From contig JAUSOK010000074.1 of the NCBI GenBank assembly GCA_030656035.1, forward strand, positions 1 to 33,252: a DNA stretch of 33,252 nucleotides, read 5' to 3'. Below the pieces are notes generated by a model that was given only the letters and a program-made list of their open reading frames with translations, had not been told where the DNA came from and ran no database searches. Below are positions 2,347 through 6,822 of this stretch, one piece after another (the first letter of the stretch is position 1; each line of letters starts with the position of its first letter). Source of the DNA: Syntrophales bacterium. Its GTDB lineage: Bacteria > Desulfobacterota > Syntrophia > Syntrophales > Fen-1087. Both the position numbers and the translations under genes were made by a program.

Positions 2347-3999
2347 TTATTCGTCGTTCATCTTCTCGATCACGGCATTGCCGGTTTCGCGGTAGGGCAG
2401 GGATTCGCGGATCGGCTCGGGGATGCGGCCGTATTTCGCCTCGAAGGCTTCCAGGTACTGCCTGCGTCCGCCCAGAAAGTCCGCCGCCCTTTTCTTCATG
2501 AGGTTTCGGTCCGTAAATAATGTATGGGCACGCATCAGATCGAGGTTCGCCCGGTCGCACTTGATGGGATAGTAATGACCCAGGCAATCCGTCTCCACGC
2601 TGAAACGGAGCTGTTTGCGGACAAGATCGTTGTAAGTCGCCAGGGACTGCCGCAGCGTCACCTTTTCGTCAAGCGGGCCGATCGTCCCCGTATTGGCCAG
2701 ATAGCAGGGAATTTTGTTTTTTCTGACGATATCGTGGAAAATCATGGCGTGCTCGAGGCGGTCGCCCGCCACAAAGGGATCGAGAAAGAATTCCCGCTTG
2801 AACTTGCCCGCCTCCTCGGGATTGCCGCCGCTGCTCTCTATGGATTCGCCGTAGATGAACAGCATCGTTGCCTGCTCGGCCGTCAGCCGGCTGATGACAT
2901 TGACCAGCGGGTTCCGGGTCAGAATAATGATGGCATGGAGCTTCTGCGCCCGCAGGCTTTTCGAGGCAATTTCGAGATTGTCGCGCGTCACGACGGCGCG
3001 GGCGTTTCCGGTTTTTACGAGATCCTTGAAATCGGGCATGTACGGATACTTGGTGACGGCCACGTTTTCCAGGAAGGCGTCTCTGGACTCGGCGGCGCGC
3101 AGAATCTCCGGCTGGCTTTCATCGAGCCCCTCCGTCTTGACATAGAGCCCGCCGATCTCGAAGGCCGCGTAACCGCCGTCAAAACCGATCGTGCCGCCGT
3201 CGTCGCCGATCATTTCGGAGCTTTCGCGCGGCAGCTTGGAAAATTTGCGGCACAGTGTCGTCGTTTTTCCTGTGGCCGTTAGCCCCGAAACGGCCGTGAC
3301 CACTTCCTGCAACTCCGGCCGCTCTGTCTTTTCGTCATAGATCCACAAATAATCCCGCCGGGCGCCGGCGTGCAGGAATATCCCCGTTTTGTCGATGGCC
3401 TTGATGCGCCAGTCCTCGAATTGGAAAACGCCCTTCTTGCCCTCGCCAAGATAGATCGTATTGCGGCAGATCTTCACCTGATCGCCCCGTTTATCTCCCA
3501 TGAAGAGACGGACCGTGACGTCCTTGTCCAGCAGTTTTTTTGCCTTGTTGGCTTCAAAGTGCTCGTCGGTAAAATAAATGATTGTATAGGTCGGATCATC
3601 AACGACGCGCGCTTCGGGCCGGTCGAGCAGCAGTTTCAGGCCGTAGGCGACATGGGCGTAGGCTTCGGGAATTAAAAAACGGACCGTCACCCCGTCCAGG
3701 CCGTCGCCGACGATGGTATCGAGGGAGATAACGCGCTCCGTGCCGAGGACGTCAATGGCCTGACAGGCCAGGGCCTCTTCGGTTTCGCCGAAGGGGTGAT
3801 CGACGCTGTTTCGGGTATGCGGGGCCGAGCGGTTCATCGGTTCGGAGTCGGCCGCCACCGAGCCGAGCTGGGTCTGAATGACCCCGTCCTGCCTCAGGGC
3901 GATACGCTTCAGCTCTTCCAGAGACAGGCCCTCGCTGAGGCGTTTGTCCCGCCGGGCCTCTTCATAGATCCGCTTTGCGGCTGATTTGAAAATATTCAT
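2347..3999 (-). CDS. pckA: Divergent ATP-type phosphoenolpyruvate carboxykinase
   Basis: A 550-residue protein of the ATP-dependent PEP carboxykinase family, which interconverts oxaloacetate and PEP with CO2 and ATP/ADP. The phosphate-binding loop is GLTATGKTTT (residues 239-248), followed by MIGDDGG (263-269) with the paired Asp that binds metal. A His in GIFLHAGA (His210) matches the family's catalytic His region, and FLENVAV is a familiar PCK segment. It differs from the E. coli type, which has GLSGTGKTTLS and GDDEHGW, and the canonical CSAN motif before the P-loop is altered. The family call is sound. The enzymatic assignment of this branch is less certain. No strong ribosome site is seen before the ATG. 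Confidence 0.8.
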   Translation of the reverse strand: MNIFKSAAKRIYEEARRDKRLSEGLSLEELKRIALRQDGVIQTQLGSVAADSEPMNRSAPHTRNSVDHPFGETEEALACQAIDVLGTERVISLDTIVGDGLDGVTVRFLIPEAYAHVAYGLKLLLDRPEARVVDDPTYTIIYFTDEHFEANKAKKLLDKDVTVRLFMGDKRGDQVKICRNTIYLGEGKKGVFQFEDWRIKAIDKTGIFLHAGARRDYLWIYDEKTERPELQEVVTAVSGLTATGKTTTLCRKFSKLPRESSEMIGDDGGTIGFDGGYAAFEIGGLYVKTEGLDESQPEILRAAESRDAFLENVAVTKYPYMPDFKDLVKTGNARAVVTRDNLEIASKSLRAQKLHAIIILTRNPLVNVISRLTAEQATMLFIYGESIESSGGNPEEAGKFKREFFLDPFVAGDRLEHAMIFHDIVRKNKIPCYLANTGTIGPLDEKVTLRQSLATYNDLVRKQLRFSVETDCLGHYYPIKCDRANLDLMRAHTLFTDRNLMKKRAADFLGGRRQYLEAFEAKYGRIPEPIRESLPYRETGNAVIEKMNDE

Positions 4000-4030: not shown

Positions 4031-4435
4031 TTAAAAACTGAACTGAATCAGGGGGCTGACGCGCTGCTGGGTTTGCCATTTCGACCATTCCCGGCTATCG
4101 AGGCAACGGTTTTCATCCGCGTCGGCGGTGGAAAATCTTTCCAGCGCCTCCTCCTGGAATTCATTCCGGTCAATTCTGCCGTCCCTGTTCTTATCCATCT
4201 CGGCAAGCCAGTCTTTCCGGTCCGCTTCCGACAAGGCCTCAAGCTCCTCCTTGTCCAGATGACCGCTGCCGTCCTTGTCCAGCTTGTTAAAGGTTTTTGC
4301 GGTCGCATCGACATATTCCTGTTGCGAAATTATGCCGTCCTTGTCCTTGTCAAGGGCTTCAAACGCCTTTTCCGCGCCGGAAACAGGCCCTGTCAACACC
4401 AGGATCATAACGACTGCGATGATAAATTTTTGCAT
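4031..4435 (-). CDS. Secreted four-EF-hand calcium-binding protein
   Basis: A 134-residue exported protein: a signal peptide (residues 1-20, hydrophobic core IIAVVMILVL, probable cut after VSG/A) followed by four EF-hand loops. Loops are at 29-40 (DKDKDGIISQQE), 53-64 (DKDGSGHLDKEE), 81-92 (DKNRDGRIDRNE) and 105-116 (DADENRCLDSRE). The fourth has Arg in place of the usual Gly6 but keeps the Asp, Asn and Glu ligands. The start at 4435 was chosen over two upstream in-frame ATGs because AAAGGA lies 8 bases before it. It follows the M50 protease gene by 29 bases on the same strand, suggesting one transcript. It probably binds Ca2+ in the cell envelope. Its partner is unknown. Confidence 0.85.
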   Translation of the reverse strand: MQKFIIAVVMILVLTGPVSGAEKAFEALDKDKDGIISQQEYVDATAKTFNKLDKDGSGHLDKEELEALSEADRKDWLAEMDKNRDGRIDRNEFQEEALERFSTADADENRCLDSREWSKWQTQQRVSPLIQFSF

Positions 4436-4464
4436 CGGCATAGTCCTTTCCATAAAATCCGCGT

Positions 4465-5088
4465 TTACGGCAATAAAATCCTGATGATCATCAGAATGAT
4501 CCCGCGGAAAAAGGCAATCAGCGGATTCAGCACGCCCAAAAACAGCAGTCCGATGATCAGGAAAAACCCGTAGGGTTCAATCCTAGAGAGGGCATACTGC
4601 CATCTTTCCGGCAAAAAGCCCATTAGAATTTTCGACCCGTCCAGCGGTGGAATCGGAATCAGATTGAATGCGGCCAAGATAATGTTGATCTGGGCCAGAT
4701 AGTAGAGCAGTGTTGCCGTCGCCGTTCCCGGAGCCGGCGACAAAAGCCGGTACAGAAAAAACGCCAGGAAGGCCAGGATCATATTCGTAATGATGCCCGC
4801 CGATGAAACCAGGATGAGGCCTTTTTTCGTATCCCGGATGTTATTGAAGTTGACCGGTACCGGCCTGGCCCAGCCAAAGCCGAAGATAAACAGCATGATC
4901 GTCCCAACGGGGTCAAGATGCCTGATTGGATTGAGACTCAATCGGCCCTGCAATTTGGCCGTCGGGTCTCCCATGCGCCAGGCCACCCATCCGTGGGCCA
5001 GCTCGTGCAGGACGACGGAATACATCAGCGGGATGGCCAGCAGGACAAATGTCAGCGGATCTTTGAGCAGCAGGTTGAGCAGTCCCAT
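4465..5088 (-). CDS. Site-2-protease-type membrane metalloprotease (M50 family, rhomboid-like short form)
   Basis: A 207-residue integral membrane zinc metalloprotease of peptidase family M50. The zinc motif HELAH is at residues 28-32 within the first hydrophobic segment, and the third ligand region NLIPIPPLDGSKIL lies near residues 142-155. Several other strongly hydrophobic stretches form the remaining membrane segments. There is no PDZ domain, so it belongs to the short soluble-domain-free group rather than to RseP. The ATG has GGAGAGG about 14 bases upstream, a somewhat long spacing. It is first of a likely two-gene unit with the EF-hand gene. Its substrate is unknown. Confidence 0.88.
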   Translation of the reverse strand: MGLLNLLLKDPLTFVLLAIPLMYSVVLHELAHGWVAWRMGDPTAKLQGRLSLNPIRHLDPVGTIMLFIFGFGWARPVPVNFNNIRDTKKGLILVSSAGIITNMILAFLAFFLYRLLSPAPGTATATLLYYLAQINIILAAFNLIPIPPLDGSKILMGFLPERWQYALSRIEPYGFFLIIGLLFLGVLNPLIAFFRGIILMIIRILLP

Positions 5089-5126
5089 GCAGATATTTTT
5101 TCCTCTCCTTGGTCTTTAGGCGGGGC

Positions 5127-5155
5127 AGTCTCGCAGAGCCAGGCGCTTCTGTCAA
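5127..5155 (-). promoter_or_regulatory. Weak candidate sigma70 promoter for the M50 protease gene
   Basis: On the minus strand a perfect -35 TTGACA (5150-5155) is followed after 17 bases by GAGACT (5127-5132), a poor -10 hexamer. Its position, about 40 bases upstream of the M50 start, fits, but the -10 makes this tentative. Confidence 0.25.
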
Positions 5156-5263
5156 TCTATAAAAATTCACAGGCGATTATACAGAACTCTCAAATTATCT
5201 TGTGGTCAAGAGCGCACTCTGCTAAATTTCGGCAAGAAGGCAGATTCGAAAGGAGGTGACCTC

Positions 5264-5416
5264 ATGGAAAAACATCATCGGTTTTCAATCTGGTATGTCC
5301 TGCTCGGTGTCTGGGTGGTGCTGATCGCCCAGAGCTATCTCTCCTCCTTGTTCGCCCACCAGGTCATTTCTTACAGTCAGTTTCTGTCGCTTTTGAAAGA
5401 GAGCAAGATCAGGTAA
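5264..5416 (+). CDS. 50-residue FtsH N-terminal fragment (possible remnant or small membrane protein)
   Basis: This short frame has an excellent ribosome site (AAAGGAGGTGAC ending 3 bases before the ATG). It encodes a basic start MEKHHRF, one membrane segment (about residues 9-30, WYVLLGVWVVLIAQSYL), then QVISYSQFLSLLKESKIR and a stop. That arrangement matches the first transmembrane helix and the beginning of the periplasmic domain of FtsH, where the SYSQF..LL motif is conserved. The AAA and protease domains are missing: the stop codon merges directly into the ribosome site of ybaK. Either it is a truncated ftsH whose remainder was deleted, or it is a retained single-pass peptide. It would be co-transcribed with ybaK. 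Confidence 0.65.
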   Translation: MEKHHRFSIWYVLLGVWVVLIAQSYLSSLFAHQVISYSQFLSLLKESKIR

Positions 5417-5427
5417 GGAGGTTCGTT

Positions 5428-5916
5428 ATGTCCCGAGACAAAACCCCCGTCACGACGGCCCTGCTGGCCCTGAAAAAAAACCAGGCGGCATTTATCCCGC
5501 GGCCTTACAAATACGAGGATCGCGGCGGGACCCGGGTATCGGCGCGCGAACTGGGCGTTGACGAACATGAAGTCATCAAGACGCTTGTCATGGAGGACGA
5601 TAATAAGTCGCCGCTGATTATCCTGATGCACGGCGACCGGGAAGTCTCCACCAAGACCCTGGCCCGCCTCCTGGGAGTGAAGGCCGTTCACCCCTGCGAT
5701 CAGAAAACCGCAGAGAAGCATACGGGTTACAAGGTGGGTGGGGTATCTCCCTTCGGGACGAAAAAGGCGTTGCCGCTGTACATGGAAGAAAGCATCGCCG
5801 GCCTGCCCCGCATCCTGATCAATGCCGGCCGCCGCGGGCTTCTGGCGGAGATGTCGCCGTCCGAACTGATCCGGGTTCTGCAGCCGGTTCTCGTGAAATG
5901 CGGCATGGCTTCTTAA
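5428..5916 (+). CDS. ybaK: YbaK/EbsC-type aminoacyl-tRNA deacylase
   Basis: A 162-residue stand-alone trans-editing protein of the YbaK/ProX superfamily. YbaK hydrolyses Cys-tRNA(Pro) mischarged by prolyl-tRNA synthetase. Supporting segments are KTLVMEDD, HGDREVSTKTLARLLG, KHTGYKVGGVSPFGTKK and LPRILINAGRRGLLAEMSP, which cover the family's substrate pocket, including the GGVSPFG loop. The length is typical. The start ATG is preceded by TAAGGAGG at 7 bases, which overlaps the stop of the FtsH-like fragment upstream, so the two are coupled. Exact tRNA specificity (Cys-tRNA-Pro versus another mischarged tRNA) cannot be proved from sequence. Confidence 0.9.
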   Translation: MSRDKTPVTTALLALKKNQAAFIPRPYKYEDRGGTRVSARELGVDEHEVIKTLVMEDDNKSPLIILMHGDREVSTKTLARLLGVKAVHPCDQKTAEKHTGYKVGGVSPFGTKKALPLYMEESIAGLPRILINAGRRGLLAEMSPSELIRVLQPVLVKCGMAS

Positions 5917-5938
5917 AAAACAAATGTCGCAAGGGTTC

Positions 5939-5967
5939 TTGACGTTATGGTTAATCGTCATTATAAT
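5939..5967 (+). promoter_or_regulatory. Strong sigma70-type promoter upstream of the thioredoxin gene
   Basis: TTGACG (5939-5944) and a perfect TATAAT (5962-5967) are separated by 17 bases. The pair lies about 80 bases before the thioredoxin start and 23 bases after the ybaK stop, so the redox genes that follow probably have their own transcript. Confidence 0.7.
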
Positions 5968-6046
5968 TTCATAGAGGATAAAAAAGTATTTTCCGGATTG
6001 CAGGCTTTGAAAAACCGGCCCGTGAGGCATCGAAAGAGATGTGATC

Positions 6047-6607
6047 ATGAGTTCCGAGCAAATTATTATCCGCTGTCTTAACTGCGGAACGAAAAATCGC
6101 ATCCCCAGGCAACGCCTGCAGGACAATCCGACCTGCGGTCACTGCAGAGCTCCTCTGGATGAAATGATCATCCGTTGCCTTTATTGCGGGACCAAAAACC
6201 GCATGCCCGAGGATCGGATCAACGACAGCCCCAAATGCGGCAAATGCGCTGCGCCGCTGGTGAACAGCGGTGAACAGGGACTCCCCGTGGATGTGACGGA
6301 CGCCACCTTTTCAAAGGAAGTCATTACCTCTGCCCGTTCCGTCCTCGTGGATTGCTGGGCGCCCTGGTGCGCCCCCTGCAGAATGGTGGCCCCGATTCTC
6401 GAAGAACTGGCCCACAAATACGCAGGCGGCGTAATAATTGCGAAACTCAACGTGGACGAAAATCCCCTGATCGCTTCCCAGTATACTATTCAGAGCATTC
6501 CCACCATGCTGCTGTTCAAGGACGGCAAAATGGTCAACAGGCTGGTCGGCGCGCTGCCCAAGGAAGAAATCGAGCGGCACCTGCTGGCGATCATGAAAAC
6601 AAACTAA
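6047..6607 (+). CDS. Thioredoxin with duplicated N-terminal zinc ribbon (TrxC-like)
   Basis: A 186-residue cytoplasmic protein-disulfide reductase. The C-terminal thioredoxin domain (about 78-186) has active site WCAPC (107-111), the cis-Pro in SIPTMLLFKDG and the usual C-terminal GALPKEEI. The N-terminal part holds two tandem zinc ribbons, Cys10/13/30/33 and Cys44/47/64/67, sharing RCLxCGTKNRxP and CGxCxAPL. Ordinary thioredoxin 2 (TrxC) has a single such ribbon, so this one arose by internal duplication. ATG 6047 was preferred to GTG 6041 because GAAAGAGA is 7 bases before it. A strong promoter lies upstream, and two Cys-rich genes follow. Confidence 0.9.
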   Translation: MSSEQIIIRCLNCGTKNRIPRQRLQDNPTCGHCRAPLDEMIIRCLYCGTKNRMPEDRINDSPKCGKCAAPLVNSGEQGLPVDVTDATFSKEVITSARSVLVDCWAPWCAPCRMVAPILEELAHKYAGGVIIAKLNVDENPLIASQYTIQSIPTMLLFKDGKMVNRLVGALPKEEIERHLLAIMKTN

Positions 6608-6639
6608 TCCTCTCAAGAGAATAAATTTCAGGGTGACCG

Positions 6640-6822
6640 ATGATCCTTTGTTCCGAAACCAAACCACAGGCGCCTGCCCCGGAATCCGACGAGGATTTTG
6701 AAAACTGCAAGGGCCGGTGCGGATATACGCAATGGTGCCGGGCCTGCATGGAAGAAAGAAAAGAACTGCTCAGAGAAGCCGAAGAAAAGGAGAACGATCA
6801 TGCCGACGAACGATACGCCTGA
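6640..6822 (+). CDS. Small Cys-rich hypothetical protein
   Basis: A 60-residue frame with an acidic, proline-rich start, a cysteine cluster (DFENCKGRCGYTQWCRACMEE) and a charged tail likely to be helical. The four closely spaced cysteines could bind zinc or an iron-sulfur cluster, but no family is recognised. Its ribosome site is weak (CAGGGTG). It begins 32 bases after the thioredoxin stop and its 3' end overlaps the next gene by 23 bases, which supports translation as part of one redox-related unit. It may be a real small gene or a chance frame. The Cys cluster and overlap favour the former. Confidence 0.5.
   Translation: MILCSETKPQAPAPESDEDFENCKGRCGYTQWCRACMEERKELLREAEEKENDHADERYA

What the first reader, a model, noticed from the sequence alone, without database searches (positions are those of the whole stretch)
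5264..5416. Orphan FtsH N-terminal membrane segment with a perfect ribosome site
A 50-residue frame encodes just the first transmembrane helix and the start of the periplasmic domain of FtsH, then stops exactly where the ybaK ribosome site begins. The translation signals are strong and the frame is undamaged, unlike a decaying pseudogene. It could be a deletion scar, or a retained peptide that inserts into FtsH hexamers.
Basis: partly seen in the sequence, partly recalled or inferred. Interest (0 to 1): 0.5.

Follow-up and report, generated by a model that had tools for sequence, protein, structure and literature searches.

The report
Stump of a deleted ftsH gene
The 50-codon reading frame is most likely what is left of a second ftsH protease gene after a deletion removed the rest of it and a neighbouring DNA-repair gene, so it is an ordinary gene remnant, although its start signals may now help express the gene behind it.

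Summary
In detail: window 5264-5416 is an intact 50-codon frame with a strong ribosome site. It encodes FtsH's first membrane helix and stops at a TAA that is itself the start of ybaK's ribosome site (TAAGGAGG). It is most likely a deletion scar. Residues 1-49 match, at 54-80% identity, the N-terminus of an accessory FtsH paralog ("FtsH-B") in 48 other genomes of the order; in 38 its frame is 596 aa or more, in 8 it runs to or almost to a contig end, in 2 undetermined bases break it. The sister genus has ftsH-B beside pckA and a mutY piece; a relative has ftsH-B - mutY - ybaK - trx. In the window's 91%-complete genome the rest of ftsH-B and any mutY ortholog were not found, and ybaK lies 2,749 nt closer than in that relative. 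The one same-genus genome held lacks the frame. No comparable short frame was found well inside a contig. A proline present in 42 of 42 other copies examined is lost, and an unselected frame this short often stays open. The genome's remaining FtsH is a different paralog, so entry into its hexamers is unlikely. ybaK may now be expressed from ftsH-B's start signals (inferred).

The parts
5250..5259 (+). Shine-Dalgarno site AAGGAGGTGA of the truncated ftsH-B frame
   Evidence: Read directly; the only occurrence in the window on either strand. That it complements the 16S 3' end is general knowledge; this genome's 16S was not read.
5264..5410 (+). codons 1-49 of accessory ftsH paralog B: first transmembrane helix and start of the periplasmic domain
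   Evidence: 54-80% identical to N-termini of FtsH-B in relatives; Kyte-Doolittle mean peaks at 1.92 over 19 residues
5411..5416 (+). junction codon AGG and the stop TAA; TAA is also the first three bases of ybaK's TAAGGAGG site
   Evidence: the exact breakpoint, within about 5411-5421, cannot be resolved without the ancestor
5414..5421 (+). TAAGGAGG, ribosome site of ybaK, 6 nt before its ATG
   Evidence: G009 has AGGAGG at a like distance from its ybaK start
5428..5916 (+). ybaK, Cys-tRNA(Pro) deacylase-like, intact frame of 162 aa
   Evidence: TIGR00011 153.2 bits, a hair under its 153.25 cut-off; Pfam tRNA_edit 99.7 bits, cut-off 25.5
6041..6607 (+). trxC-like thioredoxin; downstream neighbour of ftsH-B in several relatives
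   Evidence: NF008229 152.5 bits, cut-off 125; synteny
4465..5088 (-). M50-family membrane protease, divergent upstream gene
   Evidence: Pfam PF02163 61.1 bits, cut-off 27.2
2347..3999 (-). pckA (PEP carboxykinase); divergently oriented upstream of ftsH-B in four relatives, and of the stump here
   Evidence: tblastn synteny in L032, L042, L098, L099; the gene name is recognised by eye, no family search was run on it

Best explanation
The frame is the 5' stump of an accessory ftsH gene (ftsH-B). Shown: relatives carry the longer gene; one relative (G009) has the order ftsH-B - mutY - ybaK - trx; the sister genus has ftsH-B downstream of divergent pckA and followed by a mutY piece; here codon 49 is followed almost at once by the ybaK leader; neither the rest of ftsH-B nor a mutY ortholog was found in the genome. 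Inferred: one deletion of about 2.75 kb removed codons 50-600 of ftsH-B together with mutY. The stop is supplied by the UAA inside ybaK's own UAAGGAGG Shine-Dalgarno sequence, because the join fell in that frame, which explains why the frame 'stops exactly where the ribosome site begins'. Inferred consequence: ybaK is now transcribed, and perhaps partly translated, from ftsH-B's start signals, with the 50-codon frame as a short leader. The peptide itself most likely has no function and the join is too recent for the frame to have decayed.
For: FtsH-B in 48 other genomes of 155 searched in the order: 38 with an open frame of 596 aa or more; 8 (G008, G021, G044, G090, G113, G131, G143, G150) whose frame runs to or within about 16 nt of a contig end; 2 (G002, G058) broken at undetermined bases. 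Sister genus G002 has both parts of the protein (residues 1-312 and 313-597), pckA upstream and a mutY piece downstream. G009 has ftsH-B 600 aa, mutY at +1812, ybaK at +2913, trx at +3473; the window has ybaK at +164. In G000 an FtsH-B query finds residues 1-49, paralog A at C115 and one weak 36% match elsewhere; one M41 domain in all; no mutY match above 30% identity. Of 52 matches four have frames under 120 aa; the other three run to or within about 16 nt of a contig end. Pro36, present in 42 of 42 other copies examined, is Ser here. 30 of 450 possible single substitutions break the frame, and 12 random substitutions leave it open in 48% of simulations.
Against: In the same-genus genome G001 and in the sister genus G002 ybaK does not follow ftsH-B or mutY where its upstream side is held, so the region has also been rearranged, and the join could come from a rearrangement rather than one simple deletion. 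Only one relative (G009) shows the full ftsH-B - mutY - ybaK - trx order. The MAG is about 91% complete, so absence of mutY and of the rest of ftsH-B is not proven. Codon position 2 is 96% identical to G002 (position 1 76%, position 3 69%), compatible with constraint up to a recent time. By eye the ribosome site is stronger here than in the 11 relatives printed.
Confidence: 0.89

Rival explanations
1. Retained leader: the frame is now kept by selection as a translated leader whose termination at the UAA inside ybaK's Shine-Dalgarno site feeds ribosomes to ybaK (termination-reinitiation or unfolding of the site).
For: Strong ribosome site on the frame, intact frame, stop overlapping the next ribosome site, 11-nt gap. 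Gaps of +9 to +12 nt make a small peak in E. coli gene pairs (PMC10666635, passages seen).
Against: Not seen in any other genome of the 155 searched. The same passages report reinitiation falling 40-80% at +14 nt in E. coli pairs and say that pairs at +9 to +12 nt are likely initiated independently or, alternatively, coupled. ybaK has its own strong site.
Confidence: 0.06
2. Functional micro-peptide that enters FtsH hexamers and modulates them.
For: It is a clean single-helix FtsH N-terminus with start signals.
Against: The genome has only paralog A, one M41 domain found. blastp of the peptide against A's N-terminal 124 residues gives no equivalent alignment (best: 12 residues, E 0.045, to A's second helix), although a multiple alignment does place the two N-termini against each other. 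The proline found in 42 of 42 other copies is lost. No conservation of the short form.
Confidence: 0.02
3. Assembly chimera: the metagenome assembler joined an ftsH-B contig to a ybaK contig.
For: The genome is a 209-contig assembly in which the rest of ftsH-B and mutY are missing, and ybaK lies elsewhere in G001 and G002.
Against: The junction is inside a 33-kb contig without undetermined bases; no word of 14 bases or more from 5301-5500 recurs in the window (other contigs not compared); and ftsH-B upstream of ybaK-trx on the same strand matches G009.
Confidence: 0.03

Closest known systems
Bacterial pseudogenes / gene remnants left by deletion
   Same: 5' part of a gene found longer in relatives, the rest and a neighbouring gene not found, no conservation of the short form
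   Different: The stump happens to end in a clean stop supplied by the next gene's ribosome site, so it looks like a tidy small gene
FtsH ATP-dependent zinc metalloprotease (TIGR01241)
   Same: First membrane helix and start of the periplasmic domain
   Different: No ATPase, no M41 protease domain
Translationally coupled gene pairs and leader frames
   Same: Short frame just before a gene, stop overlapping the next ribosome site, same strand
   Different: 11-nt gap, own strong site on ybaK, coupling untested, not conserved
Small FtsH-binding proteins (lambda CIII, SpoVM)
   Same: Small proteins linked to FtsH; here only a possible parallel
   Different: Those are independent proteins; this is a fragment of an FtsH paralog. 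[quoted passage not shown] what I say of SpoVM is recalled

Membership tests
FtsH (TIGR01241) | N-terminal FtsH_ext segment with transmembrane helix | tested here: inconclusive
   FtsH_ext 24.7 bits, E 2.8e-5, just under the 25.5 cut-off and over 42 of 103 positions; 54-80% identity to FtsH-B N-termini: homologous, but only part of the domain
FtsH (TIGR01241) | AAA+ ATPase and M41 zinc protease domains | tested here: not met
   Frame ends at codon 50; the only M41 domain found in the genome is at C115
Deletion remnant / pseudogene | Full-length gene in relatives, including at a matching neighbourhood | tested here: met
   G002 (pckA upstream, mutY piece downstream) and G009 (mutY-ybaK-trx downstream)
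Deletion remnant / pseudogene | Missing part and intervening gene absent from the genome | tested here: met
   Not found; the assembly is about 91% complete, so absence is not proven
Deletion remnant / pseudogene | Relaxed constraint | tested here: inconclusive
   Pro36Ser at a site unchanged in 42 of 42 other copies, but codon position 2 still 96% identical to G002 and mean identity within the range of the intact copies
Translationally coupled leader | Short stop-to-start distance or overlap | tested here: inconclusive
   11 nt; passages of PMC10666635 give clearly reduced reinitiation at 13-14 nt
Translationally coupled leader | Downstream expression depends on leader translation | not testable with these tools
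   needs a reporter assay
Conserved small protein | Short frame kept in other species | tested here: not met
   No comparable short frame well inside a contig among 155 genomes of the order; the one same-genus genome held has no match

The most novel reading that the evidence does not exclude
The deletion scar has been taken over as a 50-codon translated leader that sets ybaK expression through a stop codon embedded in ybaK's Shine-Dalgarno sequence, giving a small new regulatory frame made from a protease gene.
Probability: 0.06. Interest if true: 0.3.

Novelty: new member of a known kind. Interest (0 to 1): 0.1.

Why it matters
Little beyond annotation: it shows how an extended Shine-Dalgarno sequence (UAAGGAGG) can give a truncated gene a clean stop and make a deletion scar look like a designed small gene. 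It also records what looks like loss of an accessory FtsH and of MutY in this lineage; MutY loss, if real, could raise the G:C to T:A mutation rate (established knowledge of MutY, not tested here).

Tried and rejected
Paper searches, seen as listings with abstract beginnings only: truncated FtsH small proteins (5 papers, none on topic by title), FtsH with SpoVM, CIII and hexamer (none), gene remnants (44 papers, 8 listed, none opened), Syntrophaceae with FtsH (none), FtsH with SpoVM (13 papers, 8 listed). Translational coupling (16 papers, 8 listed) led to passages of one paper. The sigma-70 scan of 5000-6700 found no promoter-like site before the frame and one between ybaK and trx; its count is at chance level. 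The 49-residue table had minus-strand loci in the wrong orientation and is superseded.

Rejected: FtsH-hexamer peptide (only the unlike paralog A was found in the genome); conserved small protein (no other short frame well inside a contig); chance likeness (54-80% identity in 48 genomes).

Copies that fall short of full length were checked. G131 and G153:C135 run off their contig ends (G153 has a second, full copy). G090 stops 13-16 nt from a contig end. G143, G150 and G113 reach contig ends, as do G021, G044 and, by coordinates, G008. G002 and G058 are broken at undetermined bases. In the second collection L128 has a frame of 514 aa that ends inside its contig without undetermined bases; I did not find out why. 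Left out of the 43-row comparison: L018 and L024 (matches do not cover residues 1-49), L029 and L030 (weak matches, 34-38% identity, not FtsH-B), and the matches that got no locus. The 42 other copies come from 41 genomes.

Full report
What is there. Window 5264-5416 (+) is an intact 50-codon frame, ATG to TAA, with AAAGGAGGTGA just before it and ybaK (ATG at 5428) 11 nt after it. Its first 49 residues match the start of FtsH: Pfam FtsH_ext E 2.8e-5, just under the curated cut-off. The window is a whole contig (C42, 33,252 bases) of a 1.98-Mb, about 91% complete assembly in 209 contigs.

Which FtsH. Searching the order with the 50-residue peptide gave matches in 49 of 155 genomes, the window's own included, at 54-80% identity apart from itself. 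Of the 48 others, 38 have an open frame of 596 aa or more, 8 run to or within about 16 nt of a contig end, and 2 (G002, G058) are broken at undetermined bases. Full copies read here are 596-612 residues. I call this paralog FtsH-B; the example from G034 scores 813 bits against the FtsH model, cut-off 600. The genome's own complete FtsH, at C115, is a different paralog (A): 48-50% identical to four FtsH-B proteins, 865 bits to the same model, near what I recognise by eye as tilS and folP. G009, G018, G034 and G054 each have two M41 domains, one of them at the FtsH-B locus; the window's genome and its same-genus neighbour G001 each have one. G002 also has one only, that of FtsH-B, in an 84% complete assembly. 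FtsH-B is thus an accessory paralog with a patchy distribution.

What happened at this site. In G009 the order is ftsH-B (600 aa), mutY at +1812, ybaK at +2913, trx at +3473. In the sister genus G002, ftsH-B follows divergent pckA and is followed by a mutY piece at +1793; its frame is interrupted at an undetermined base. pckA also lies divergently upstream of ftsH-B in L042, L098 and L099. In L034, L036, L115, L116, L117 and L119 trx lies 2.3-3.3 kb after ftsH-B with no ybaK match between. In the window, pckA and an M50 protease gene lie divergently upstream and ybaK starts at +164, which is 2,749 nt closer than in G009. An FtsH-B query found in the genome only residues 1-49, paralog A and one weak 36% match, and a MutY query found nothing above 30% identity (the query passes TIGR01084, 344.5 bits against 286.5). 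A deletion from codon 49 or 50 of ftsH-B to the ybaK leader explains both losses. G001 has M50, a PPOX-like gene and mutY in a row with no ftsH-B between them (its contig ends soon after mutY), and its ybaK lies on another contig behind other genes; in G002 ybaK also lies elsewhere. So the region is unstable in this family, and a rearrangement join cannot be excluded.

Why it ends so neatly. The stop TAA is the first part of TAAGGAGG, the ribosome site of ybaK. UAAGGAGG is the extended Shine-Dalgarno sequence (established knowledge), so it carries a stop codon in one of three frames. The join fell in that frame. Of the other two frames one would have run on to a stop at 5559 and the other had no stop in the 300 bases scanned and is the frame of ybaK. 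The exact breakpoint, within about 5411-5421, cannot be fixed without the ancestor.

Is the frame kept? No other genome searched shows it. Of 52 matches, four frames are shorter than 120 aa: this one, two that run off contig ends, and one that stops within about 16 nt of a contig end. The second collection (19 loci) gave no frame under 120 aa inside a contig: L113 is G002's contig, L114 reaches its contig end, L128 ends at 514 aa for a reason I did not find, in L124 the gene start lies outside the locus, and three weak loci (L129-L131) had no hit in my scan. Against 42 other copies (41 genomes) the window's frame changes one residue that they all share, Pro36 to Ser; its mean identity to the others (0.668) lies within their range (0.605-0.767). 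Against G002 codon positions 1, 2 and 3 are 76%, 96% and 69% identical. Of 450 single substitutions 30 would break the frame, and about half of simulated neutral frames still stand after 10-12 substitutions. The intact frame therefore shows that the loss is fairly recent or that the frame is kept, and does not decide between them; the lack of a second case and the lost proline favour the first.

What it does now. The likeliest effect is on ybaK: it now sits behind ftsH-B's start region (inferred). Coupling by termination-reinitiation is possible at 11 nt but expected to be weak: passages of PMC10666635 report a 40-80% drop at +14 nt in E. coli pairs. No promoter-like site was found before the frame; one (TTGACG-17-TATAAT) lies between ybaK and trx, in a scan whose count is at chance level. 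Insertion of the peptide into FtsH hexamers is unlikely, because the remaining FtsH is paralog A and its N-terminal helix does not align with the peptide by blastp.

Verdict. Most likely an ordinary deletion remnant of an accessory ftsH gene; interest low. The boldest reading left open, a scar taken over as a translated leader for ybaK, I put at about 6%.

Noticed in passing
G002:C161, L032 (ftsH-B +1793 and +8869): Two partial mutY matches on one contig in the sister genus: a 3' piece directly after ftsH-B and the main part about 7 kb on at the contig end, as if something was inserted with partial duplication.
   Followed up: no
window 4031-4453 (-): A small protein with what look like EF-hand repeats (recognised by eye, no family search) lies between pckA and the M50 protease gene; in G001 (L087) these two genes are adjacent without it.
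   Followed up: partly
G000 whole genome: No mutY ortholog found (best matches 25-30% identity); possibly a mutator background, or missing from a 91% complete assembly.
   Followed up: partly
window 5939-5967 (+): Promoter-like TTGACG-17-TATAAT between ybaK and trx (11 of 12 consensus bases; the scan as a whole is at chance level).
   Followed up: no
window 6041-6607 (+): TrxC-like thioredoxin with two Zn_ribbon_Thio2 stretches before the thioredoxin domain.
   Followed up: no
L128 (JAIPDZ010000027.1), match at 809: An ftsH-B copy outside the order search whose frame ends at 514 aa inside the contig, with no undetermined bases.
   Followed up: no
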